Source of the DNA: Kyrpidia tusciae DSM 2912
GTDB lineage: Bacteria; Bacillota; Bacilli; Kyrpidiales; Kyrpidiaceae
DNA: 64,000 nucleotides
Assembly: GCF_000092905.1 (NCBI RefSeq)
Contig: NC_014098.1
Location: forward strand, 868,001-932,000
Reading direction: 5' to 3'
Below are positions 29,644 to 42,409 of this stretch, piece by piece. Position 1 is the stretch's first letter. The number at the start of each line of letters is the position of its first letter. The translations under genes and the position numbers were made by a program. The notes beneath the pieces were generated by a model, which was not told the DNA's origin, searched no databases, and saw only the letters and a list, made by a program, of their open reading frames with translations.

Positions 29644-31059
29644 TTAAAACGCCATCGTCAGCCGCGGAGGACCTTGGCAACGCGCCAGCAGCCAGTCCCG
29701 ATCCATCCACCCCTGCGTCCAGCTTTCGTACAGAAACTTCAACGTCCCGCTAAAGCCCAGTTCCCGCACTTTCTTCATCAGCCCTTCGGTATGCAAGGCC
29801 ATGACGTTCACCAGATGGCCGAGGTGCATCAGCACGTGCCAGTTTCGCATCGCCGTCCAGTCGGTGGAGTACAGGTGCTCATACTCGTATCCCCGGTGCT
29901 TCTCCGTCAGGATCTGTTCCTCAATGTCCCATCGGTGGCGTGCCGCACGATTGCAGCGGTTCACCACATTTTGTGCCGTCAGCGGCTGCCCGGACACCCA
30001 CGCCCAATGCGCCTCCTGCTGCTTCCCCCCCTCTTCCCAAAACTCTGTACATCCCACGACATGCACCTTAAGCCGACGGCGCGCCCCGGAAGCCTCCCTG
30101 AAATCATAGTCGATCTGATTGATCCACCAAAAGATTTGCTCGCGATTGCCCCACCGGTGTCTCCGCTCGTTGGGTTCGATCTTTCTCAAGCCTTTGACCT
30201 CTTCCCACACACTGGGCAAACAGCTTTGGGGCAGGACAAACATAAAGTCCAGATGCAGATCCCGACACAGCGCCATCATCGGCCCGTTGGGGTACAGCCC
30301 ATCGGCCACCACCAAGATCCGCAATTTGGGAAACATCTTGCGCAGGCGGGTCAGCAGCCGTTTGCAGGCCTTCAGTTCACTGTCTTGCTTCTCGAACTCC
30401 TGCTGCTCAGCCGCATTCTCGCAAAACTCCGTGAGAAACGGGAGGACCACCCCTTGAGGGCTGACAAGGCTAGCCTCCAGGGCATAGGCCATGGACGAGA
30501 CCTCGTTCTCCCCGTGCCGACGATGCAAAGCCTCCGAGGCCCAGGGCTGCCCCCGACTCGCCTTTTGGGTCCCGTCTATGGCGATCACGTATTGCTTCTC
30601 GACCAACAGCGCCTTCAGTCGTCCCGACCGCAGAAGGCGCTTCACCGTCGCCGTCATCACCTCCTCGAGCTCCCCCGGATTGATCCGTTCCAAGATCCGC
30701 TGCACCGTGTCCATATGCGGGATGGTTTCCACCTCCGGAAAGATCTCCCGAAAGTGTTCCCAAAACGTTGGACGCGTCAGTTCCCGATTGGCTCTTCTGC
30801 GGGAGGCATACTGAAAGATAAACATGAACAGCCCAAACGTCAGAAGCACAGTCAGTTTGTGCCGAATGCTCCCTGGACGTCGGGGGTCGGCAATCCGCGA
30901 AAACTTCTCCATCAAGCCCGGCAACAACGCTCGCCAAACCGGCAACTGGGCTTCCACGGCCGTTTGCCGGTCCGCTCGCTCCTCCTCGCTGTTTCGATAC
31001 GAGCTTTTCCGATTCGGAAGGGTCCAGGGGTGAATCGACTCGGGATTCCGAAGCGTCAT
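29644..31059 (-). CDS. IS4-like DDE transposase, copy A
   Basis: 471 aa from ATG 31059, which overlaps the DUF4338 stop (ATGA). The open frame continues upstream but there it shadows the other gene. Likely acidic residues are D in YVIAIDGTQKAS, D in ILVVADGLYPNGP and E in RWDIEEQILTEKHRGYEY, a YREK-like block typical of the IS4 superfamily. The N-terminal third has RRPGSIRHKLTVLLTFGLFM. A 9-bp target duplication is common in parts of IS4. I do not recall a named family with this gene pair. Confidence 0.8.
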   Translation of the reverse strand: MTLRNPESIHPWTLPNRKSSYRNSEEERADRQTAVEAQLPVWRALLPGLMEKFSRIADPRRPGSIRHKLTVLLTFGLFMFIFQYASRRRANRELTRPTFWEHFREIFPEVETIPHMDTVQRILERINPGELEEVMTATVKRLLRSGRLKALLVEKQYVIAIDGTQKASRGQPWASEALHRRHGENEVSSMAYALEASLVSPQGVVLPFLTEFCENAAEQQEFEKQDSELKACKRLLTRLRKMFPKLRILVVADGLYPNGPMMALCRDLHLDFMFVLPQSCLPSVWEEVKGLRKIEPNERRHRWGNREQIFWWINQIDYDFREASGARRRLKVHVVGCTEFWEEGGKQQEAHWAWVSGQPLTAQNVVNRCNRAARHRWDIEEQILTEKHRGYEYEHLYSTDWTAMRNWHVLMHLGHLVNVMALHTEGLMKKVRELGFSGTLKFLYESWTQGWMDRDWLLARCQGPPRLTMAF

Positions 31060-32081
31060 CTCGATTCCCCCCACTCGTCTTCCACAAGCTGTGGAAAGGG
31101 TTCGACCAACCGCTTCCGCCAGTCCCGCACCAGCGGATAGACCCAGATCGATTTCACGGACGTTCCATACTCGAAGAATCGATCCTGTCTTCCTCGTCCC
31201 GCCGTCTTCCCGATCTCGATCCAGTTGGCCGCTCGGTAGCAAGTCCCTGGATATTGGGGTTCGATAAACGTCTCCAAAAGAACCGGTTCAAACCCATAGC
31301 GCGCCTTCCAATCCGCTCGAATCCGCCGGGCCGCCAACGCAAGCGCATGACTGGCCAGATGGGGAATCTGTACACCCGGCAGAATCAGAAACCGATTGTT
31401 GTTCACGATTCGTGGGCGATACCGCCTGCGCTGCTCCGCCGTCCATCCGATCCACTGATCCCGTGCAGCCAGGGCCTTCGCCGCAGCCCCAAACAACATC
31501 GCCCCCACAATGACCGGTCCGTTTGGCCCCTGTGCCCGGATCCAGTACTGGATGCGGGCCCCGATCCCACGAAGGTACCCCAACGGGTGATACGTCGCCA
31601 TGGTCGCGTTCCAGTCTGCCCGTTCTTCCGGACGGACCGGCTCCACGATGACCGGAAGGACATCCCGCAGGCACGCCTGAAGCTGGGTTTGTACCACCCC
31701 CCCTCTTCGTTCCCGGCACCCTCGGGGACCCTGGGCTCGCAAGGGCGGAAGAGTAATCACTCCTTTTTGCTCGAGTTTTAGAAGCAGCTTGTGGCAGGCT
31801 TCGACTTTCAGCCGGCCATTCGGGGACTTCCACGGCAGATTCTCACACAAGGTCGCCGCGATTTCCTCTCGACTCAAGCGGGAAAACCGCTGGACCGTGT
31901 TTCGAATCAATTCCAGGTCCGCCTCGCGAAACTCTCGGTCGCCAATCCAAAAGGGTACGTCCATCTGAGACTCACCTCTCGACATCATCTCCAAGGTTAT
32001 CATCTCAGATGGGCTCAGAACTGTCCAGTCGTATTTGCAATCAAATTTTCTTGAGACGCGCTCTGAAGTCAAGCGTCCCAA
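31056..32081 (-). CDS. DUF4338 (DruA-like) protein of the IS, copy A
   Basis: 341 aa. The N-terminal part (about 45-110) has a winged-helix look, LSREEIAATLCENLPWKSPN. The central DUF4338 core runs YHPLGYLRGIGARIQYWI then GAMLFGAAAKALAARDQWIG. Then VNNNRFLILPGVQIPHLASH and FIEPQYPGTCYRAANWIEIG complete the family pattern. The family includes DruA of the Druantia phage defence, but here it is the first gene of an IS with no other Druantia genes, so a transposition role is more likely. A promoter-proximal 5' extension before GESQMDVPFWIGDREF may not be translated. Confidence 0.85.
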   Translation of the reverse strand: MGRLTSERVSRKFDCKYDWTVLSPSEMITLEMMSRGESQMDVPFWIGDREFREADLELIRNTVQRFSRLSREEIAATLCENLPWKSPNGRLKVEACHKLLLKLEQKGVITLPPLRAQGPRGCRERRGGVVQTQLQACLRDVLPVIVEPVRPEERADWNATMATYHPLGYLRGIGARIQYWIRAQGPNGPVIVGAMLFGAAAKALAARDQWIGWTAEQRRRYRPRIVNNNRFLILPGVQIPHLASHALALAARRIRADWKARYGFEPVLLETFIEPQYPGTCYRAANWIEIGKTAGRGRQDRFFEYGTSVKSIWVYPLVRDWRKRLVEPFPQLVEDEWGESR

Positions 32082-32109
32082 GGGCTTCCCGGTTCATGCG
32101 TCAGCACTG

Positions 32110-32587
32110 GAGCCAAAGCCATTCAGTGCAAATCGGAATCGCATCCTGAAACGCAGTGACGGCCATCCTCGGCTCTCCCCGCCGTTTCTGGATTTGTAAG
32201 CTGCAAGGAGATTGTGCCACGCAACCCAAATATTCAGCACGGTGTTGCTCCGGTCTTCCGCGATGGGAGGCGGAGTTTCGCGGCTATGGGATCCGCTTCC
32301 CCTTCTTGTCGCTTGGAGTGCATCTGTCCTGCGACAGACAAAATTTTATTGCAATGCATGGGGTTATAGTGTTAAATTTCGGTTGACCGTAAATGGAGGG
32401 AAATTCGGGTGTCTACGGGATGCTCGCCTTTACTTCGCTCTAAGAGGGCGGGGTGTCCAGACGGGGCGTGTATTGTCGGGGCTTCCGGGAATCCGATGCA
32501 CCGAGAGCTCGCTCGGGTGCATGGCGCGTTCGCCGGGATGGATGGGCCGGCTTTGTCTGTCTGATGTTCGATGAGGGGGTGGCGAGG
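32110..32587. other. Gap between IS copy A and the amidohydrolase
   Basis: Starts with the right target duplication. I see no credible gene or strong promoter. GATGAGGGGGTGG near 32570 is the ribosome site for the next gene. Confidence 0.4.
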
Positions 32588-33784
32588 ATGGCGGTTTTGG
32601 TCGCGGAGTTGGAGGAGCTGGCGGCGGCGGTTAAAGACGATGTGGTGGGGTGGCGGCGGTATCTGCACGCCCATCCGGAATTGTCGTTCCAGGAAGAGAA
32701 CACGGCGCAGTTTGTCTATGATACGCTGCGGTCGTTCGGCGGATTCGAGTTGAGCCGGCCGACGAAAACCAGTGTCGTGGCGCGGCTGATCGGGGCTGCG
32801 CCCGGGCCGGTGGTGGCGGTGCGGGCGGACATGGACGCCCTGCCGATCCAGGAGGAGAACGATCTGCCCTTTGCCTCGACCAATCCCGGGGTGATGCACG
32901 CCTGCGGGCACGACGGACATACGGCGATGCTCCTCGGGGCGGCCCGAATCCTCTCCGCCCTTCGGCCTCGATTGCGGGGCGAGGTGCGGTTCCTGTTTCA
33001 ACACGCCGAGGAGCTGTTTCCCGGCGGCGCCCAGGAGCTGGTGGTCCTCGGGATCGTGGACGGGGTGCGGGCGGTGATCGGGGCCCACCTGTGGATTCCG
33101 TTGGAAGTTGGCAAAATCGGGGTCAAGGCCGGGGAGTTGATGGCTTCGCCGGATCGGTTTCGCATCGTGATCCGGGGGCGGGGCGGGCACGCGGCCCAGC
33201 CGCACATGACGGTGGACAGCATCGCCGTCGGTGCCCAGGTGGTCACGAACCTCCAGCACATCGTGTCGCGCTACGTCGATCCTTTGGATCGACTGGTGGT
33301 GTCGGTGACGCGGTTTATGGCCGGCACAGCGGACAACGTGATTCCTGAATCGGCGGAACTGTGGGGTACGGTGCGGTGCTTTAACCCGGAGTTGCGCCGG
33401 CAGGCGCCCGGGTGGATCGAGCGGGTGGTCAAAGGCGTCACCGAAGCCCACGGGGCGAGCTATGACATGGAATATACCCACGGATACCGGCCGGTGATCA
33501 ACGATCCGGCGGTCACGGCGCTGCTGCGCGAGGGGCTGGAGGAAGTCTTCGGGGCCGAGGCGGTGGTCGACGCCGTTCCCACCATGGGGGGAGAAGATTT
33601 TTCAGCGTATCAATCCCGGGCGGCGGGGAGTTTCTTCTTCATCGGCGCCGGCAATCCGGACAAAGGGATCACCTTCCCCCACCACCACCCGCGGTTTACC
33701 GTGGACGAAGACGCCCTGCCCCTCGGGGTCAAGGCGCTGGTGGCCGGGGTGATGAAACTTCTGGCCGAGGGAAAATCTCTGTGA
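32588..33784 (+). CDS. M20D-family amidohydrolase (N-acyl-amino-acid / hippurate hydrolase type)
   Basis: 398 aa. HAHPELSFQE, AVRADMDALPIQEEND, HACGHDGHTAMLLGAA and LFQHAEELFPGGAQELV are the di-metal site and catalytic Glu of the HipO/AbgB/IAA-amino-acid hydrolase group. TMGGEDFSAYQ and PHHHPRFTVDEDAL give the C-terminal ligands. It removes acyl groups from N-acyl amino acids in the cytoplasm. ATG 32588 (MAVLVAELEELAAAVKDD) is ten bases after GAGGGGG; ATG 32564 is an alternative. It is isolated between mobile elements. Confidence 0.9.
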   Translation: MAVLVAELEELAAAVKDDVVGWRRYLHAHPELSFQEENTAQFVYDTLRSFGGFELSRPTKTSVVARLIGAAPGPVVAVRADMDALPIQEENDLPFASTNPGVMHACGHDGHTAMLLGAARILSALRPRLRGEVRFLFQHAEELFPGGAQELVVLGIVDGVRAVIGAHLWIPLEVGKIGVKAGELMASPDRFRIVIRGRGGHAAQPHMTVDSIAVGAQVVTNLQHIVSRYVDPLDRLVVSVTRFMAGTADNVIPESAELWGTVRCFNPELRRQAPGWIERVVKGVTEAHGASYDMEYTHGYRPVINDPAVTALLREGLEEVFGAEAVVDAVPTMGGEDFSAYQSRAAGSFFFIGAGNPDKGITFPHHHPRFTVDEDALPLGVKALVAGVMKLLAEGKSL

Positions 33785-33939
33785 CCATTCGCATCGGCTT
33801 GCGGTGGGAGCCCGCGGGATGCGGGTGAAGGTATGGGAGTCATGGGCGGAAGACACGGCTATGGTGTGCTCGGTCACCGAGGCCAGCGCAAGCAAACGGG
33901 AGGTCGGCATTGAGGCGCGGCCGCGACCCGTACGGTGGT

Positions 33940-34137
33940 CATGAGCAGGTTCACATCCCTGGCGGTCAGTTTGTCTCCGTACAGGCAAATGTCGATATCC
34001 GAGGATCTGCGGTAATCGCCTCGGGCTCGGGAACCGTAGACGGAGGCGCGTTCGACGCGTTCATTGCCGCTGAGGACGGCGACGATATCCTGCAACAAAC
34101 GGTTGTCGATGCCGAAGCGGTCCATGAACATCCGCAC
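33940..34137 (-). pseudogene. 5' fragment of an MNT nucleotidyltransferase gene
   Basis: MFMDRFGIDNRLLQDIVAVL through DICLYGDKLTARDVNLL is nearly identical to the gene at 26975-27310, then breaks off at about 33940. Its upstream region continues at 36215, beyond the IS110 insertion. Confidence 0.85.
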
Positions 34138-34470
34138 CCTCCTCGTATGATAGTAGTAGAAGGTCTTCTTCGTTGAATTTCCAGTAGGTCCGGAACTGCT
34201 GGAGCAGCGCTGGAGAACTTCCAGAGCCGGCTCTTTTATCCATCCCTATGAGACAGCTGCTCATAGGGGTGGAGGTGGTGGGCTTCCCCATCCACATCTG
34301 TTGGTGTAGGTCGGTTGTCGGCGTGTCTTGGTCTGGCCATGTTTGTGGATCATCTGGATGGGGAAGTTCCCATCGCCGTTGGTTATTGAATCCATCGCGT
34401 TTGGTCTTGGAGTTGCACAACCGTCACTCCGTTTCTTTGTCATGCCTTTGTTCCTTGATAATTCCATATC

Positions 34471-34720
34471 TCTCCACCTCCAGTCGGGGGAAGCCCCAAC
34501 GTGTTTGGTCGGTGGAGATTTCGACAGCCCGGCCTGCCTGTGGGACAATGGGATCAGCAAGTCTTTCTCGGGAGATTTCTTCCCCTCCTTGCGGACCGTT
34601 TGGTACTGCTGTGGAAAGCCTGCTACCCAGGATCCACCACCCATGCTCTAACCACTGGTTGCACCTCCATCCCGGATGGGGTGTAGTGGCCCGCAATTGA
34701 CATCCGGATGGATGAGTGCT
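34471..34720 (+). ncRNA. Candidate bridge RNA region of the IS110 element
   Basis: Structured sequence upstream of the transposase. TCTCCACC (34471-34478) pairs with GGTGGAGA (34511-34518) around an inner GGGG/CCCC hairpin. CCCTCCTT (34583-34590) equals the target left side plus core. GGAAAG (34613-34618) is complementary to core plus right target CTTTCC. ACCACTGG (34651-34658) equals the element's right end (36204-36211). I did not find the fourth expected guide. The extent given is approximate. Confidence 0.45.
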
Positions 34721-34803
34721 GATGACGAGGCTGAGGTCGGTGGTTCCCACGGGCACCCAGGTCCGGGACTGGCTTGACTCTTCCCCGAACGGAGGTGAAT
34801 CCG

Positions 34804-36039
34804 TTGCCGAAACTGCATGTTGGGATCGACGTGAGCTTGAAGGCCCACCATATTCAATTTATGGATGAGGCCGGTCAGAACTTGGCCTCGTTTCAGATCT
34901 CCAATGACCCACAGGGAGCCGACACTCTCATTCACAAGGTCTTGGAGATCACAGAGACCAAGCACATGGATAGCGTCGTTGTCGGCATGGAGGCGACAGC
35001 CAACCTCGGCTGGCATCTGGCCCATTACCTCAAACAACAACTCGAGGACCATGCACCACACCTCGACGCTCAGATTCACGTCTTAAACGCGCGGAGAGTG
35101 GCTCGTTTCAAGAAGGCGTATGACCACCTTCCCAAAAACGACCGCATCGATGCCTGGGTGATTGCGGACCACCTGCGGTTTGGCCGTCTCCCACAAGCCA
35201 TGACAGACACGATCCGATACGAAGCGCTTCAACGTCTCACCCGGACTCGGTTTCATGTGATGCAGACCATGTCTCGGGACAAGACCTTCTTCCTGAACCA
35301 GCTGTTTCTTAAGTTCAGTGGTCTGCGTCAAGACAACCCGTTCTCCGATACTTTCGGTGCCACGTCGCTCGCCGTCATTCAGGAGCTGGAGCCTGAACAA
35401 ATCGCTGCGATGCCCCTTGAGGATCTTGTGGCGCTCTTGGTCGACAAAAGCAGAAACAAGTTTGACGACCCAAAGCAGATCGCACAGGAACTCCAAAAGG
35501 TTGCACGCAGGTCCTTTCGACTGGACAAGGTGATGCAGGATCCCGTCAATCTGTCGCTGTCCGTTACCCTCAGCGTGATCCAGCACATGGACGCTGAGGT
35601 GAAGAAACTCGACCGAGCGATTGCCAGGCTGATGAAAGCGATCCCAAATACCCTCGAGTCGGTCAAGGGCATCGGCCCTGTATACGCAGCCGGAATCATA
35701 GCCGAAGTCGGCGACATTCGACGTTTCAAGAACCACAACGCCTTAGCCAAGTACGCCGGACTGGTCTGGAATCAGTACCAATCCGGGGAGTACGAAGCCG
35801 ATGAAACATCCCGAATGCGTACTGGGAACAAGTACCTGCGCTATTATCTGATTCAAGCTGCGGACCAGGTTCGCCGCCATGATTCCGAGTACGCCGAGTT
35901 TTACCGCAAGAAGCACGACGAAGCGCTGAAGCACCAACATAAAAGAGCCCTCGTCCTGACTGCAAGAAAACTGGTACGCTTGGTGTTCACACTACTGAGC
36001 ACCAATCAGCTGTACACACCCCCGGAGAGGAGGAGATAA
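34804..36039 (+). CDS. IS110-family transposase (DEDD recombinase)
   Basis: 411 aa. The RuvC-like domain has HVGIDVSLKAHHIQF (Asp), VVGMEATANLGWHL (Glu) and KNDRIDAWVIADHLR (two Asp). The C-terminal Tnp domain has SVKGIGPVYAAGIIAEVGDI, the helix-hairpin-helix, and KYAGLVWNQYQSGEYEADET with the candidate serine nucleophile. TTG 34804 is six bases after GGAGGTG; the open frame begins at TTG 34774. The protein is full length, so the element could be active if its bridge RNA is intact. Confidence 0.9.
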   Translation: MPKLHVGIDVSLKAHHIQFMDEAGQNLASFQISNDPQGADTLIHKVLEITETKHMDSVVVGMEATANLGWHLAHYLKQQLEDHAPHLDAQIHVLNARRVARFKKAYDHLPKNDRIDAWVIADHLRFGRLPQAMTDTIRYEALQRLTRTRFHVMQTMSRDKTFFLNQLFLKFSGLRQDNPFSDTFGATSLAVIQELEPEQIAAMPLEDLVALLVDKSRNKFDDPKQIAQELQKVARRSFRLDKVMQDPVNLSLSVTLSVIQHMDAEVKKLDRAIARLMKAIPNTLESVKGIGPVYAAGIIAEVGDIRRFKNHNALAKYAGLVWNQYQSGEYEADETSRMRTGNKYLRYYLIQAADQVRRHDSEYAEFYRKKHDEALKHQHKRALVLTARKLVRLVFTLLSTNQLYTPPERRR

Positions 36040-36214
36040 CCACTACCTCCAGACGGACGGATTTTCCAGTTTTGCACCCATGAACATCGCTCGAAAATTC
36101 GGCGAACATCATGGGTTTGTTTAAGGTCGCCCTTTAACCTTCGCATTTGTAACTATTTCCCACATCCATTCCCAATTTTCTTCGACCACCCCCTTGACAT
36201 TTCACCACTGGGCT

Positions 36215-36330
36215 TTCCGAGAGTGGCCGTGGACCGGAGGCCGGTCCGGGGCGACCCGGCGGTTGTCTTCCTTTTACCTGATGTTGGTGAGGATTGTCAA
36301 CCGGGGGAACGTTGGTGGACATCATTTGTG
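36215..36330 (-). repeat. Duplicated upstream region of the MNT gene
   Basis: TTCCGAGAGTGGCCGT and the next 100 bases repeat 27323-27440 with scattered changes. It is the other half of the site split by the IS110 element. Confidence 0.75.
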
Positions 36331-36456
36331 GGATTCGCCATAATAAACATACACGCAAAGGGGAATCGGATCATCCCACGGGAGCCCGTGGGTCTCGAAT
36401 GAGGGCGGCTGCACGGCTGGAAAATCGGCGAAGCTTGGGAAAGGGGGCGCGAAGGA

Positions 36457-36512
36457 ATGGCAATTCCTAAGAAACTCCCGAAATTTCTTTGGCCGTTGTT
36501 TCATAACTACGT
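36457..36512 (+). pseudogene. N-terminal stump of a DUF6922-like protein
   Basis: ATG 36457 after GCGAAGGA reads KKLPKFLWPLFHNYVF, the opening pattern of small antitoxin-like proteins (LPKFLWxLFWDYDF). Similarity ends within 20 residues. The family name is from memory. Confidence 0.4.
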
Positions 36513-36589
36513 ATTCCTCGACGTCTTTGCCGCGCAAGTAGGCCTCCAAACACCGCCCGCTCCGGAAAAGCGAAATTCGGCAACAACCT

Positions 36590-36725
36590 TTCTTCAACTG
36601 TCCTCCTGCCAAGAACGAGCACCGCGTCCTTCTTTCTCCGATCGGGAGCATTTCTTCAATGGTGTTGTCTGCGCGTTTCCATTGTCATCCGTCTGTCTCG
36701 ATCGTTTTGATGAGTTCTCGGGATG
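36590..36725 (-). pseudogene. Third Fic-family fragment
   Basis: The minus strand reads QWKRADNTIEEMLPIGERRT, nearly the same as the Fic pseudogene at 23692-24482. An in-frame stop precedes it. Confidence 0.65.
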
Positions 36726-36770
36726 AATAACTTTTCACCGGCTCCACCACCCCGCATACCATCGAGACCA

Positions 36771-36815
36771 TTATAATACGTGTGTCCATACGTGTACAGA
36801 GATCCAGATGGGGTT
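36771..36815 (-). pseudogene. 3' end of a gene split by IS copy B
   Basis: Continues the minus-strand frame from 39482 across the insertion: NPIWISVHVWTHVL and a stop at 36771. Includes the left target duplication 36807-36815. Confidence 0.45.
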
Positions 36816-37015
36816 CAGTGCTGACGCATGAACCGGTGTAGAAAAAATTCGGAGGCAGCTGAGGCGGCCCCGGACTCTGAATCCCTTCTGCCTGTAGGGT
36901 GTCCCTGTAAAGGAGAATCGCCCTGAATGACGGGAAAATCTATTTCTGTTGATTATTGGATCCCCAGAGGTTACAGCTCCCCTCCCCCACAGAACGATGT
37001 TGCAAGATATTCCTG

Positions 37016-38431
37016 TTAAAACGCCATCGTCAGCCGCGGAGGACCTTGGCAACGCGCCAGCAGCCAGTCCCGATCCATCCACCCCTGCGTCCAGCTTTCG
37101 TACAGAAACTTCAACGTCCCGCTAAAGCCCAGTTCCCGCACTTTCTTCATCAGCCCTTCGGTATGCAAGGCCATGACGTTCACCAGATGGCCGAGGTGCA
37201 TCAGCACGTGCCAGTTTCGCATCGCCGTCCAGTCGGTGGAGTACAGGTGCTCATACTCGTATCCCCGGTGCTTCTCCGTCAGGATCTGTTCCTCAATGTC
37301 CCATCGGTGGCGTGCCGCACGATTGCAGCGGTTCACCACATTTTGTGCCGTCAGCGGCTGCCCGGACACCCACGCCCAATGCGCCTCCTGCTGCTTCCCC
37401 CCCTCTTCCCAAAACTCTGTACATCCCACGACATGCACCTTAAGCCGACGGCGCGCCCCGGAAGCCTCCCTGAAATCATAGTCGATCTGATTGATCCACC
37501 AAAAGATTTGCTCGCGATTGCCCCACCGGTGTCTCCGCTCGTTGGGTTCGATCTTTCTCAAGCCTTTGACCTCTTCCCACACACTGGGCAAACAGCTTTG
37601 GGGCAGGACAAACATAAAGTCCAGATGCAGATCCCGACACAGCGCCATCATCGGCCCGTTGGGGTACAGCCCATCGGCCACCACCAAGATCCGCAATTTG
37701 GGAAACATCTTGCGCAGGCGGGTCAGCAGCCGTTTGCAGGCCTTCAGTTCACTGTCTTGCTTCTCGAACTCCTGCTGCTCAGCCGCATTCTCGCAAAACT
37801 CCGTGAGAAACGGGAGGACCACCCCTTGAGGGCTGACAAGGCTAGCCTCCAGGGCATAGGCCATGGACGAGACCTCGTTCTCCCCGTGCCGACGATGCAA
37901 AGCCTCCGAGGCCCAGGGCTGCCCCCGACTCGCCTTTTGGGTCCCGTCTATGGCGATCACGTATTGCTTCTCGACCAACAGCGCCTTCAGTCGTCCCGAC
38001 CGCAGAAGGCGCTTCACCGTCGCCGTCATCACCTCCTCGAGCTCCCCCGGATTGATCCGTTCCAAGATCCGCTGCACCGTGTCCATATGCGGGATGGTTT
38101 CCACCTCCGGAAAGATCTCCCGAAAGTGTTCCCAAAACGTTGGACGCGTCAGTTCCCGATTGGCTCTTCTGCGGGAGGCATACTGAAAGATAAACATGAA
38201 CAGCCCAAACGTCAGAAGCACAGTCAGTTTGTGCCGAATGCTCCCTGGACGTCGGGGGTCGGCAATCCGCGAAAACTTCTCCATCAAGCCCGGCAACAAC
38301 GCTCGCCAAACCGGCAACTGGGCTTCCACGGCCGTTTGCCGGTCCGCTCGCTCCTCCTCGCTGTTTCGATACGAGCTTTTCCGATTCGGAAGGGTCCAGG
38401 GGTGAATCGACTCGGGATTCCGAAGCGTCAT
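37016..38431 (-). CDS. IS4-like DDE transposase, copy B
   Basis: The protein is identical to copy A at 29644-31059, 471 aa from ATG 38431. Same ATGA overlap with the DUF4338 gene. Intact. Confidence 0.8.
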   Translation of the reverse strand: MTLRNPESIHPWTLPNRKSSYRNSEEERADRQTAVEAQLPVWRALLPGLMEKFSRIADPRRPGSIRHKLTVLLTFGLFMFIFQYASRRRANRELTRPTFWEHFREIFPEVETIPHMDTVQRILERINPGELEEVMTATVKRLLRSGRLKALLVEKQYVIAIDGTQKASRGQPWASEALHRRHGENEVSSMAYALEASLVSPQGVVLPFLTEFCENAAEQQEFEKQDSELKACKRLLTRLRKMFPKLRILVVADGLYPNGPMMALCRDLHLDFMFVLPQSCLPSVWEEVKGLRKIEPNERRHRWGNREQIFWWINQIDYDFREASGARRRLKVHVVGCTEFWEEGGKQQEAHWAWVSGQPLTAQNVVNRCNRAARHRWDIEEQILTEKHRGYEYEHLYSTDWTAMRNWHVLMHLGHLVNVMALHTEGLMKKVRELGFSGTLKFLYESWTQGWMDRDWLLARCQGPPRLTMAF

Positions 38432-39453
38432 CTCGATTCCCCCCACTCGTCTTCCACAAGCTGTGGAAAGGGTTCGACCAACCGCTTCCGCCAGTCCCGC
38501 ACCAGCGGATAGACCCAGATCGATTTCACGGACGTTCCATACTCGAAGAATCGATCCTGTCTTCCTCGTCCCGCCGTCTTCCCGATCTCGATCCAGTTGG
38601 CCGCTCGGTAGCAAGTCCCTGGATATTGGGGTTCGATAAACGTCTCCAAAAGAACCGGTTCAAACCCATAGCGCGCCTTCCAATCCGCTCGAATCCGCCG
38701 GGCCGCCAACGCAAGCGCATGACTGGCCAGATGGGGAATCTGTACACCCGGCAGAATCAGAAACCGATTGTTGTTCACGATTCGTGGGCGATACCGCCTG
38801 CGCTGCTCCGCCGTCCATCCGATCCACTGATCCCGTGCAGCCAGGGCCTTCGCCGCAGCCCCAAACAACATCGCCCCCACAATGACCGGTCCGTTTGGCC
38901 CCTGTGCCCGGATCCAGTACTGGATGCGGGCCCCGATCCCACGAAGGTACCCCAACGGGTGATACGCCGCCATGGTCGCGTTCCAGTCTGCCCGTTCTTC
39001 CGGACGGACCGGCTCCACGATGACCGGAAGGACATCCCGCAGGCACGCCTGAAGCTGGGTTTGTACCACCCCCCCTCTTCGTTCCCGGCACCCTCGGGGA
39101 CCCTGGGCTCGCAAGGGCGGAAGAGTAATCACTCCTTTTTGCTCGAGTTTTAGAAGCAGCTTGTGGCAGGCTTCGACTTTCAGCCGGCCATTCGGGGACT
39201 TCCACGGCAGATTCTCACACAAGGTCGCCGCGATTTCCTCTCGACTCAAGCGGGAAAACCGCTGGACCGTGTTTCGAATCAATTCCAGGTCCGCCTCGCG
39301 AAACTCTCGGTCGCCAATCCAAAAGGGTACGTCCATCTGAGACTCACCTCTCGACATCATCTCCAAGGTTATCATCTCAGATGGGCTCAGAACTGTCCAG
39401 TCGTATTTGCAATCAAATTTTCTTGAGACGCGCTCTGAAGTCAAGCGTCCCAA
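38428..39453 (-). CDS. DUF4338 (DruA-like) protein of the IS, copy B
   Basis: Same as copy A except one substitution (ATMAAYHPLGYL here, Thr in place of the second Ala there). 341 aa and intact. Two intact, near-identical copies imply that the gene is kept because the element needs it. Confidence 0.85.
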   Translation of the reverse strand: MGRLTSERVSRKFDCKYDWTVLSPSEMITLEMMSRGESQMDVPFWIGDREFREADLELIRNTVQRFSRLSREEIAATLCENLPWKSPNGRLKVEACHKLLLKLEQKGVITLPPLRAQGPRGCRERRGGVVQTQLQACLRDVLPVIVEPVRPEERADWNATMAAYHPLGYLRGIGARIQYWIRAQGPNGPVIVGAMLFGAAAKALAARDQWIGWTAEQRRRYRPRIVNNNRFLILPGVQIPHLASHALALAARRIRADWKARYGFEPVLLETFIEPQYPGTCYRAANWIEIGKTAGRGRQDRFFEYGTSVKSIWVYPLVRDWRKRLVEPFPQLVEDEWGESR

Positions 39454-39481
39454 GGGCTTCCCGGTTCATGCGTCAGCACTG

Positions 39482-39724
39482 GATGGGGTTCTTCTGCATC
39501 CTTACCTTATTATGGGGGTTAAATTTTAAGGACGGCCGCCCGGACATCAGGGTGGCCTGAACCAGTTTCGCATATCGACGATCAAACCGATTTGTTATCC
39601 ATATCTCGCTCTTGGCCGTAATCTGGTCCAGTGGTTTCATCAGTTTATCGACTGTACGGAACGGTCCGCTTATCCCGCCGAGTAACCCGTCGGGGATGGC
39701 GAGGAGGTCAAAGTAAATGGCAGT
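39482..39724 (-). pseudogene. 5' part of an unknown gene split by IS copy B
   Basis: The minus-strand frame after the stop at 39725 reads FDLLAIPDGLLGGISGPFRT, VDKLMKPLDQITAKSEIWIT and NRFDRRYAKLVQATLMSGRP. It leads into the insertion and continues at 36815. It has no start codon upstream of KLMK, so it was probably a fragment before the insertion. I know no family. Confidence 0.4.
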
Positions 39725-39826
39725 CTATCCAGTCGCGGCTTCCTTCACCCGTTAAGACCCTAAGATGCAACACGTTGTCTGAGAGCATGAAGTGACATAT
39801 GCTTCTATGTAGGTAGGTGTAGAAGC

Positions 39827-40246
39827 ATGGAGAAGCTGCTGACTCCTGAGCAGGTGGCTGAGCACTTGGTGGTGGCTGAACGTACAGTCTACGAATGGCT
39901 CCGGACCGGGCGCCTGCGAGGGATCAAACTCGGGCGCCTGTGGCGTGTGCGTGAGAAGGACTTGGAGGCTTTCCTCCAGGGCGAGGAAGGGAAACCTTTG
40001 TGTTCCGAGGATCCGGCGGCTGTACGCCGTGGGCTGGAGGGCGTGAAGGGTAGCCTCGTGGTGCCTTGGGAGAAGCTGCGCAAGGAACGTGAGGAAACGG
40101 AAGAGGACGGCGCATGGCTGGAATCGGACCTGGGTGGGGAAGTTCCACCTTATGACTGGGGACCGGAAGGCCCGCCGAAGGGAAAGCCGGTGCGGTACGT
40201 GCCGGGCATAGGTCCTGTGGTAGAGGGCGGGAAGCATGACCGGTGA
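39827..40246 (+). CDS. Excisionase-type HTH protein, probable antitoxin
   Basis: 139 aa. The MerR/excisionase-like helix-turn-helix is at the N-terminus: LLTPEQVAEHLVVAERTVYE, WLRTGRLRGIKLGRLWRV. The rest is acidic and Gly/Pro-rich (EEDGAWLESDLGGEVPP) and likely disordered, as in antitoxin arms. GTAGGTGTAGAAGC precedes ATG 39827, and a palindrome-like CATATGCTTCTATG...AGAAGCATGG brackets the start. It overlaps the PemK-like toxin by 11 bases. No integrase or phage genes lie nearby, so a true excisionase is unlikely. Confidence 0.75.
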   Translation: MEKLLTPEQVAEHLVVAERTVYEWLRTGRLRGIKLGRLWRVREKDLEAFLQGEEGKPLCSEDPAAVRRGLEGVKGSLVVPWEKLRKEREETEEDGAWLESDLGGEVPPYDWGPEGPPKGKPVRYVPGIGPVVEGGKHDR

Positions 40247-40601
40247 CCGCCTCGAGCCAGGAGACATGCTCCTGGTTCACCTGCCTGGGCACGTCCCGCC
40301 GGGACACGAGCAGGAGGGGGTTCGCCTGGCTGTCGTGCTTGGCGTGCCGCCGGAGCCCGTCCGCTTTGGCGTGGTCCTCGTCGCACCGGCGACGACGCGC
40401 GCCGGGCAGTGGGCCAGGAGGAATCCCCTGCTTTACCCGCGGTTGCCGGCCGGCGCCGGCGGACTTCGTCGGCCATCGACCATCCTCTTGGACCAGGTGC
40501 GAGCACTCGACCTACAGCGGACGGTGGAGTACCTGGGTACGCTGGCCCCGACGGAACTGGAGATGATCCGCAGGGGACTGCGCGCGTTGCTGAATCTGTG
40601 A
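40236..40601 (+). CDS. PemK/MazF-family endoribonuclease toxin
   Basis: 121 aa. The SH3-like barrel is seen in LEPGDMLLVHLPGH, EGVRLAVVLGVPPEPVRFGV, VLVAPATTR, and PSTILLDQVRALDLQRTVEY, followed by the C-terminal helix ELEMIRRGLRALLNL. The RP(A/V)VV core of MazF is modified to RLAVVLG. It should cut mRNA. It starts 11 bases inside the antitoxin gene. Confidence 0.82.
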   Translation: MTGDRLEPGDMLLVHLPGHVPPGHEQEGVRLAVVLGVPPEPVRFGVVLVAPATTRAGQWARRNPLLYPRLPAGAGGLRRPSTILLDQVRALDLQRTVEYLGTLAPTELEMIRRGLRALLNL

Positions 40602-40721
40602 GGCGTGAATGGGTTCTTTCTCAACCTCGGCCCCCCCGTGATCCCATCCACGGCACCCGCTTTCTCGGACGACCCGCTCCGACTCTGAACAAGTACCTTG
40701 GCCGGGCACCTGCCGAACCAG

Positions 40722-40751
40722 GTTGGTTTACGCCTCGTTGGTTTACGCCTC
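40722..40751. repeat. 15-bp tandem duplication
   Basis: GTTGGTTTACGCCTC occurs twice in direct succession. Confidence 0.7.
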
Positions 40752-40984
40752 CAGCTCACTGGTTGGTTTTCGGTCGACTTCAGGCCGGTCGCAGGAGCGG
40801 CTCCGCACCCGGCCAAGCCGTTGCCGCCTTGGCCACCTGATGCCGTCCCTTTTCCACAATCCGCGATCAATACCACTGTATAAGTCCTGCTGCATCACCA
40901 ACCCGCACTCGCACCCGTGTACTCTCCGATTGAGCGCTTTCTTCTTCCGCCGGCCGTAGTGACACCGCTCGGATAAGGCCGGCG

Positions 40985-41022
40985 CGATATTTTCAAGCCA
41001 GCGGGACTTTTGTAAGAGACCT
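40985..41022 (+). pseudogene. 3' scrap of a hicA gene
   Basis: ATATTTTCAAGCCAGCGGGA and the following CTTTTGTAAGAGAC repeat the end of hicA and its 3' flank (28081-28115) with two changes. Confidence 0.6.
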
Positions 41023-41101
41023 ATGGCGAGAATCGACTTCCCGGTTTGACTGGATATTCGCTTTATACCACCTATACGGAAAATTTATACGACTTTTTCG
41101 C

Positions 41102-41130
41102 TTGACGCCGTCCGACGAGTCTGATAACAT
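41102..41130 (+). promoter_or_regulatory. Promoter of the aconitase X operon
   Basis: TTGACG (41102-41107), 17-bp spacer, TAACAT (41125-41130). Confidence 0.6.
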
Positions 41131-41203
41131 GTGAATGTGGTTATTCAAGAGATAGGAAATCATGAATGACTACATTTACACGAGCCGTGGAGGAGGGGTG
41201 CGG

Positions 41204-42409
41204 ATGTATTTGACGGCCGAGGAACAGGCCATGCTGGACGGCGAGTTCGGCGAGGGGGCGGCCCTGGCCATGCGGGTTTTGGTGGGGATTGGCGAGGCTT
41301 TTGACGCCCCGCGAATGGTGCCCATCCGCCGAGCCCATGTGGCGCTCAGCAACCAGGAGGCGGACCTGTGGTTTGTCGAGCGCATGGTCGGGCTGGGGGC
41401 GCGATGCCGGGTGGCGCCAACGGTAAATCCGGGCTTTGACCTGGAATATTTCAACCGGGCCGCCGCCCTGGAAGCAGGGGATGTGGAGCAGATGGAGCGG
41501 ACGTACCGGGCGTATCGGGCCATCGGGGCGGTGTTGAATTTTAGCTGCACCCCCTACCTGTTGGACAACATCCCGCGTCAGGGAGAGGTGGTCGCCTTTT
41601 CCGAGTCCAGCGCCACTCCTTATGTGAATGCCGTCTACGGGGCCCGGAGCAACCGGGAGTCGGCCCAGAGCGCGCTGTGCGCCGCGGTGGCCGGCCGGGT
41701 ACCGGAGTACGGGCTACTTCTGGCCGAAAACCGCCGGGGGCAGATCGTGGTGGACGTCAAGGCCGAGTTGTCGAGTGATTTTGACTACCAACTGTTGGGA
41801 TACGCTGTGCCGAAAAAGATCGGCCACCGGATCCCGGTATTCGTGGGTATCCCCGATACGGCCTCCCCGGAGGCACTCATGAACCTGTGTGCCGAGCTGA
41901 ACACCGCCGGGGCCGTGCCCATGTTTCACATTGTCGGCCTCACCCCCGAGGCACCGACTTTGGAAGCGGCCCTGGGCGGTCGGGAGCCCGTGGACACCGT
42001 GACCGTCACAGACCGGGACTTGCTGGAGGTTCGGGAACAGATCTCCCAAGCTCCGGGTCAGGTGGATTTCGTTCTTCTCGGCTGTCCCCACCTCAGCCTG
42101 CGCCAGCTGCAGACCATCGCCGAGCTGGTGCGGGGGAAGAAGCTGCGGGTGGAGCTGTGGATCAACACCTCGGCGTATACCCGGGAGGTGGCGGCCCGGA
42201 TGGGCCTGGTGGACGTCATCGAGAGGGCGGGGGGGCACGTGCTTCAGGACACCTGCGTGGACCAGCCGATCTGGAAGCACCTGGAGGGGAAAACCGGAGC
42301 CACGGAATCGCCCAAATGCGCGTATTACACGAAGCGCAGGCAGATGAACTTTGTGATCCGGAGCCTGGAGGCCTGTGTTCAGGCGGCGGTCGAGGGGGTG
42401 ATCGCATGA
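41204..42409 (+). CDS. Aconitase X catalytic (large) subunit
   Basis: 401 aa, DUF521/AcnX. Family features are MYLTAEEQAMLDGEFGEG, the stretch PRMVPIRRAHVALSNQEADL, CTPYLLDNIPRQGEVVAFSE with a cluster cysteine, SSATPYVNAVYGARSNRES and, near the end, VLQDTCVDQPIW. AcnX enzymes are Fe-S dehydratases; known ones act on cis-3-hydroxy-L-proline, or on mevalonate phosphate in archaea. ATG 41204 after GGAGGAGGGG is preferred over ATG 41162. It is coupled by ATGA to the small subunit. The real substrate here is open. Confidence 0.87.
   Translation: MYLTAEEQAMLDGEFGEGAALAMRVLVGIGEAFDAPRMVPIRRAHVALSNQEADLWFVERMVGLGARCRVAPTVNPGFDLEYFNRAAALEAGDVEQMERTYRAYRAIGAVLNFSCTPYLLDNIPRQGEVVAFSESSATPYVNAVYGARSNRESAQSALCAAVAGRVPEYGLLLAENRRGQIVVDVKAELSSDFDYQLLGYAVPKKIGHRIPVFVGIPDTASPEALMNLCAELNTAGAVPMFHIVGLTPEAPTLEAALGGREPVDTVTVTDRDLLEVREQISQAPGQVDFVLLGCPHLSLRQLQTIAELVRGKKLRVELWINTSAYTREVAARMGLVDVIERAGGHVLQDTCVDQPIWKHLEGKTGATESPKCAYYTKRRQMNFVIRSLEACVQAAVEGVIA

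What the first reader, a model, noticed from the sequence alone, without database searches (positions are those of the whole stretch)
34471..34720. Candidate bridge RNA with guides that match the observed target
In the non-coding left part, CCCTCCTT matches the target left side and core, and 22 bases later GGAAAG is complementary to the core plus right side. Further on, ACCACTGG matches the donor left side at the element's right end. This is the order expected for target loop then donor loop in IS110 bridge RNAs. The right donor guide was not found.
Basis: partly seen in the sequence, partly recalled or inferred. Interest (0 to 1): 0.7.

Follow-up and report, generated by a model that had tools for sequence, protein, structure and literature searches.

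The report
Bridge RNA aimed at ribosome-binding sites
A jumping gene of the IS110 family carries a guide RNA whose target guide looks like the ribosome's own "start-here" reader (the anti-Shine-Dalgarno tail of 16S rRNA), so in a whole clade of Bacillota the element lands just in front of genes, next to their start codons.

Summary
The window holds an intact IS110 element (34142-36214). The element has five intact copies and one interrupted copy. The left non-coding end encodes a bridge RNA with a fold supported by compensatory changes (50 pairs, 21 changed on both sides). Guides covary with their DNA across relatives: left target guide in 29 element groups and 53 sites, left donor guide for 14 distinct ends; none of 20,000 permutations matched either. 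Two empty sites in a sister species (96% identity) confirm the insertion point. Excision would rebuild a TTGACA-17-TATGAT promoter.

The unexpected part is the target. The guide resembles the 16S anti-Shine-Dalgarno tail, and insertions sit at Shine-Dalgarno sequences: 49 of 67 junctions have a start codon 11-14 nt away (random 7%), also in relatives with about 42% transposase identity. One copy sits in a CRISPR spacer carrying such a sequence and one inside an integrase gene, so sequence, not gene context, decides. IS900 is a known precedent for the target class. No RNA or recombination was measured.

The parts
34142..34143 (+). left copy of the CT core dinucleotide
   Evidence: shared by the junctions of the copies; empty sites hold one CT
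34133..34141 (+). left target (host DNA) CGCACCCTC; on the other strand, with the core, the Shine-Dalgarno sequence AGGAGGGTGCGGATG of a nucleotidyltransferase gene
33874..34137 (-). host gene downstream of the targeted Shine-Dalgarno sequence (Polbeta/NTP_transf_2 nucleotidyltransferase)
34144..36212 (+). IS110-family insertion sequence, body between the two cores
   Evidence: six copies in the genome with common ends
34146..34151 (+). TATGAT, -10 half of the promoter rebuilt in the circular form
34529..34779 (+). bridge RNA, conserved structured region (ends approximate)
34579..34589 (+). left target guide with core (CTTCCCCTC+CT), anti-Shine-Dalgarno-like
   Evidence: covaries with the target, 0 of 20,000 permutations
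34591..34609 (+). hairpin between the two target guides
   Evidence: 7 pairs, 3 with compensatory changes, 100% of cells paired
34612..34618 (+). right target guide TGGAAAG (ends with core complement AG)
   Evidence: first base after the core covaries, 27 of 20,000 permutations
34650..34658 (+). left donor guide AACCACTGG
   Evidence: covaries with the right end
34722..34729 (+). right donor guide ATGACGAG, pairs with CTCGT.AT of the left end with one extra RNA base
   Evidence: conserved and opposite the left donor guide in the fold
34791..34798 (+). GGAGGTGA, Shine-Dalgarno sequence of the transposase, conserved in the family
34804..36039 (+). DEDD transposase/recombinase, likely TTG start (candidate residues D9, E63, D113, D116, S327)
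   Evidence: PF01548 1.4e-26, PF02371 5.6e-23; residue positions; PDB hits IS621, ISCro4
36194..36199 (+). TTGACA, -35 half of the promoter rebuilt in the circular form
36204..36212 (+). left donor (right end of the element), ACCACTGGG
36213..36214 (+). right copy of the CT core

Best explanation
34529-34779 encodes the bridge RNA of an IS110 element. When the element excises as a circle, the joined ends form a sigma-70-type promoter that drives an RNA through the left end (inferred). The RNA's target loop pairs with a Shine-Dalgarno sequence in the host DNA and its donor loop with the element's own end junction; the DEDD recombinase then joins the two at the CT core. The left target guide resembles the anti-Shine-Dalgarno tail of 16S rRNA, so the element inserts just upstream of start codons. 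The neighbouring gene keeps its Shine-Dalgarno sequence and start codon. Shown here: element ends, core, empty sites, fold with compensatory changes, guide-target and guide-donor covariation, Shine-Dalgarno sites. Inferred: transcription, RNA binding, recombination, and that the guide evolved for this target.
For: Six copies with common ends and CT core. Two empty orthologous sites, 502 of 502 nt at 96%, in a sister species. Fold: 50 pairs, 21 with both-side changes, 86 compensatory cells against 29.8 shuffled, collapses when slid. Left target guide versus target: 0 of 20,000 permutations in 29 groups, and 16 of 20,000 in the 12 distant groups alone. Left donor guide versus right end: 14 distinct ends, 0 of 20,000. 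A donor prediction held: L022's odd guide AACCGCTTGT recurs at its right end AACCGCTTGTCT. TTGACA and a TATAAT-like hexamer meet across the joined ends: 32 of 34 distinct junctions have at least 10 of 12 matches (12 such positions in 127,920 of the window). Start codon with open frame at +11 to +14 in 49 of 67 junctions against 7.3% of random positions and 13 of 67 AGGRGG motifs elsewhere in the same flanks. A copy inside a CRISPR spacer carrying AAAGGAGGACAGTGACATG and a copy inside a phage-integrase gene argue that sequence alone is read.
Against: No RNA or recombination was measured. The single-sequence fold is not more stable than shuffles (z -1.1). The right target guide is weak: only the first base after the core covaries clearly, and at four bases significance is lost. 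The RNA starts about 385 nt from the promoter-bearing left end, whereas in IS621 it follows directly, so a long precursor, processing or a separate promoter is needed. The left target guide of some members was not located by the automatic search. 18 of 67 junctions lack a start codon with an open frame at that distance.
Confidence: 0.93

Rival explanations
1. The guide matches are real, but the excess of Shine-Dalgarno sites reflects survival: insertions inside genes are lost, those just upstream of genes persist.
For: Insertions at these sites leave the coding sequence and the Shine-Dalgarno sequence intact.
Against: Survival alone cannot place nearly every junction within a base or two of AGGRGG in the same orientation, nor make target variants follow guide variants between species. 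AGGRGG motifs elsewhere in the same flanks precede a start codon far less often (13 of 67). The copies in a CRISPR spacer and in an integrase gene fit the guide without being before a gene.
Confidence: 0.08
2. The recombinase protein, not the RNA, recognises Shine-Dalgarno DNA, and the guide-like sequences are incidental.
For: All members of the clade share both the recombinase and the target class.
Against: Target differences between members follow guide differences (Kyrpidia CCCTC-CT versus B. dakarensis TCCCC-CT; L069 guide CATCGCTC-CT with target GATCGCTC-CT). The related IS621 and ISEc11 are RNA-guided (PMC11208160, PMC11187229).
Confidence: 0.03
3. The block is a leader or regulator RNA of the transposase gene and not a bridge RNA.
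For: It lies directly upstream of the transposase and ends near its Shine-Dalgarno sequence; no Rfam family matches.
Against: A leader has no reason to covary with host DNA at the insertion site or with the element's far end.
Confidence: 0.02

Closest known systems
IS621 and its bridge RNA (Durrant et al. 2024, PMC11208160)
   Same: DEDD recombinase with PF01548 and PF02371, CT core, left-end RNA with target loop before donor loop, guides in the same order, 9-base left target guide, gapped right donor guide, promoter rebuilt across the joined ends.
   Different: IS621 targets REP elements (ATCAGGCCTAC); this clade targets Shine-Dalgarno sequences. Here the RNA lies about 385 nt inside the left end, the whole RNA is closed by an outer stem, and sequence similarity to the solved recombinases is low (best E 1.2e-05).
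IS900 of Mycobacterium avium subsp. paratuberculosis
   Same: IS110 family; target motif CATGNNNNNNTCTCCTT (PMC8141618), which is a start codon and Shine-Dalgarno sequence read on the opposite strand.
   Different: Reported as a motif with no RNA guide attached in the papers read. It includes CATG, which our guides do not match. If its core is CT, the Shine-Dalgarno sequence would be split differently (inference, not tested).
ISEc11, ISEc21 and seekRNA (PMC11187229)
   Same: IS110/IS1111 elements with a target-selecting non-coding RNA that can be reprogrammed.
   Different: Other targets (for example REP and attC sites); IS1111 members carry the RNA downstream of the transposase.

Membership tests
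IS110 family (IS110 group) | DEDD catalytic domain plus Transposase_20 domain with conserved serine | tested here: met
   PF01548 1.4e-26 and PF02371 5.6e-23; candidate residues D9, E63, D113, D116, S327 read from the sequence
IS110 family (IS110 group) | scarless insertion at a dinucleotide core, no other target duplication | tested here: met
   two empty sites hold one CT and no other change at the junction; CRISPR repeat spacing would be 68 after removal, within the array's 65-70
IS110 family (IS110 group) | RNA-coding non-coding region upstream of the transposase (left end) | tested here: met
   conserved structured block 34529-34779, transposase from 34804
IS110 bridge RNA | left and right target guides matching the target, covarying | tested here: met
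   left: 0 of 20,000; right: first base only, 27 of 20,000
IS110 bridge RNA | left and right donor guides matching the element ends | tested here: met
   left: 14 distinct ends, 0 of 20,000; right: ATGACGAG to CTCGT.AT conserved, little variation to test
IS110 bridge RNA | conserved secondary structure with two internal loops | tested here: met
   50 pairs, 21 with both-side changes, 0 of 500 shuffles
IS110 bridge RNA | promoter rebuilt across the joined ends of the circle | tested here: met
   TTGACA-17-TATGAT here; 32 of 34 distinct junctions at 10 or more of 12; by sequence only
IS110 bridge RNA | RNA is transcribed, bound by the recombinase and directs recombination | not testable with these tools
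   needs RNA-seq, pull-down and a recombination assay
Rfam families | match to a described RNA family | tested here: not met
   no match up to E 1 in 30000-42000
IS900-type translation-start targeting | insertion at Shine-Dalgarno plus start codon | tested here: met
   49 of 67 junctions, start codon at +11 to +14 with open frame
IS900-type translation-start targeting | start codon (CATG) is part of the recognised motif | tested here: inconclusive
   the guides match the Shine-Dalgarno part only; a copy inside an integrase gene lacks a start codon at that distance, the CRISPR-spacer copy has one

The most novel reading that the evidence does not exclude
The guide is an anti-Shine-Dalgarno mimic with a second job: as free RNA it could pair with messenger RNAs, first of all with the conserved GGAGGTGA of its own transposase messenger, and so limit transposase synthesis, tying target choice and copy control to one RNA segment.
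Probability: 0.12. Interest if true: 0.75.

Novelty: new variant of a known kind. Interest (0 to 1): 0.62.

Why it matters
Bridge RNAs are known as programmable guides, but what natural ones are tuned to find is mostly known for REP elements and similar repeats. Here a whole clade across Bacillota (37 of 399 sampled species have a member at E <= 1e-90) uses a guide that reads one of the most common regulatory sequences of a genome. It offers a testable mechanism for the old observation that IS900 inserts at translation starts. It gives many natural guide-target pairs for measuring mismatch tolerance. The CRISPR-spacer copy is a natural experiment showing that sequence alone is enough.

Tried and rejected
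Rfam search of the region: nothing. Single-sequence fold: not better than shuffles, so the fold claim rests on the alignment only. An alternative closing stem (alignment columns 19-31 with 240-256) was counted: 90% of cells paired but few compensatory changes, so it was not adopted. A first right-target-guide test was out of register by one base and was redone. A conserved GGGACAAT box before the guide was considered as a promoter -10, but no -35 is conserved in relatives. The other IS110 elements of the same genome (27-29% identity) do not insert at Shine-Dalgarno sites, so the target is not a property of the host. No covariance model was built: the alignment is longer than the tool's time limit would likely allow.

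Full report
Setting. The window lies in a 3,384,766-base, single-contig genome. The size suggests Kyrpidia tusciae DSM 2912 (from memory; the record name was not shown). ORF 34774-36039, more likely starting at TTG 34804 after GGAGGTGA, is an IS110 recombinase: PF01548 1.4e-26 and PF02371 5.6e-23; the only PDB relatives by sequence are ISCro4, IS621 and one further IS110 protein. The genome has five intact copies and one interrupted by another IS110 element.

Ends and core. Aligning the copies gives a left end starting CT|CGTATGATAG and a right end ending ACCACTGGG|CT. Joining the flanks with a single CT gives sites that exist uninterrupted in a sister species: two 502-base queries matched end to end at 96%, with the junction intact. 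Element plus one core is 2,071 bases.

Guides. In window coordinates the left target guide with core is 34579-34589, the right target guide 34612-34618, the left donor guide 34650-34658 and the right donor guide 34722-34729. The last, ATGACGAG, pairs with CTCGT.AT of the left end with one extra RNA base, similar to the gapped right donor pairing described for IS621 (PMC11208160).

Covariation. Relatives were taken from named genomes and from class- and phylum-wide searches. In 17 close element groups with 29 sites the left target guide matches its own target at 5.71 of 9 positions against 4.62 with guides permuted (0 of 20,000). With 12 distant groups added, 53 sites in all, it is 5.67 against 4.70 (0 of 20,000); the distant groups alone give 16 of 20,000. 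The distant guides were located from their hairpin context and then cut by hand to end at the core, so that step is not fully blind. Examples: Kyrpidia TTCCCCTC-CT with CACCCTC-CT; Bacillus dakarensis TTCTCCCC-CT with TCCCC-CT at six sites and CCCCC-CT at a seventh; L069 ACATCGCTC-CT with CGATCGCTC-CT. The right target guide is weaker: the first base after the core covaries (27 of 20,000), longer stretches do not clearly. The left donor guide and right end vary together (CACTGG, CGCTGG, CGCTAG, CGCTTG, CGCAGG, CGTTGG, CGTAGG, CGTATG, CGCGGG, CGAAGG identical in both; a few ends differ in the last base; 5.71 of 6 against 3.86, 0 of 20,000). L022 served as a prediction: its odd guide AACCGCTTGT led to the right end AACCGCTTGTCT, which the first search had missed.

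Fold. RNAalifold on 15 members gives 50 pairs, 21 with both-side changes. Counting on the alignment: 96.5% of cells paired, 86 compensatory cells against 29.8 shuffled, covariation score 0.388 against 0.200, 0 of 500 shuffles, and collapse when slid. The two target guides flank a hairpin (34591-34609); the two donor guides face each other across one internal loop. The window's own sequence alone is not more stable than shuffles.

Promoter. TTGACA near the right end and TATGAT at the left end come to lie 17 bases apart only when the ends are joined. 32 of 34 distinct junctions score at least 10 of 12, against 12 such positions in 127,920 of the window. This is the arrangement reported for IS621. 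Here the structured RNA starts about 385 bases downstream, a difference that is not explained.

Target. The guides read as CCTCCT-like, that is, like the 3' tail of 16S rRNA (established knowledge). Of 67 distinct left junctions from members 35-100% identical in the transposase, 49 have ATG, GTG or TTG 11-14 bases from the core with an open frame of at least 30 codons, against 7.3% of random positions in the same flanks and 13 of 67 AGGRGG motifs elsewhere there; with ATG only it is 38 of 67 against 2.7%. In these the gene reads away from the left end and keeps its Shine-Dalgarno sequence and start codon. Window copy: a nucleotidyltransferase gene. Other copies: a Nitro_FeMo-Co protein, an enoyl-CoA hydratase, a carbonic anhydrase. 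Two copies are natural controls: one lies in a spacer of a long CRISPR array, the spacer carrying AAAGGAGGACAGTGACATG; one lies inside a phage-integrase gene at GGGAAAGGGAGG. Other IS110 elements of the same genome do not use such sites. Junctions of one element are separate insertions but share a guide, so p-values for the target class describe the clade, not 67 independent guides.

Literature. IS900 inserts at CATGNNNNNNTCTCCTT (PMC8141618), which is the same target class. The bridge RNA and seekRNA papers do not mention Shine-Dalgarno or ribosome-binding-site targets in the passages searched, and library searches found no paper joining the two. The library is open-access only, so absence is weak evidence of novelty.

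Verdict. A bona fide IS110 bridge RNA by every sequence test available; new in the target it is tuned to, with IS900 as precedent for the target and IS621 for the mechanism.

Noticed in passing
window 31056-32081 (-) and 38428-39453 (-): Two near-identical 341-aa ORFs with a DruA domain (PF14236), the second beside a DDE_Tnp_1-associated transposase at 37016-38614 (-); looks like a repeated mobile element.
   Followed up: partly
own genome 2348273-2348332 (+) and 537909-537998 (-), loci L088, L087: Isolated left-end remnants without transposase. The first still precedes AGGAGGAAAAACATG of an intact 275-codon ORF, so a gene can live on with the element's end as its leader.
   Followed up: partly
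L016 300-5000: Long CRISPR array (39 or more repeats GTTTCCATTCCTCATAGGCACGCTACGAAC) split by an IS110 copy inside one spacer.
   Followed up: yes
L076 1085-1326 (+): Rfam HEARO RNA (RF02033) ends at the right end of an IS110 copy.
   Followed up: no
window about 34282-34370: Hairpin GGCTTCCCCATC / GATGGGGAAG between left end and bridge RNA, conserved in several relatives and absent in shorter members; role unknown.
   Followed up: no
L019 / L013 (own genome 1400071-1402904): One copy of the element is interrupted by a second, distantly related IS110 element.
   Followed up: partly
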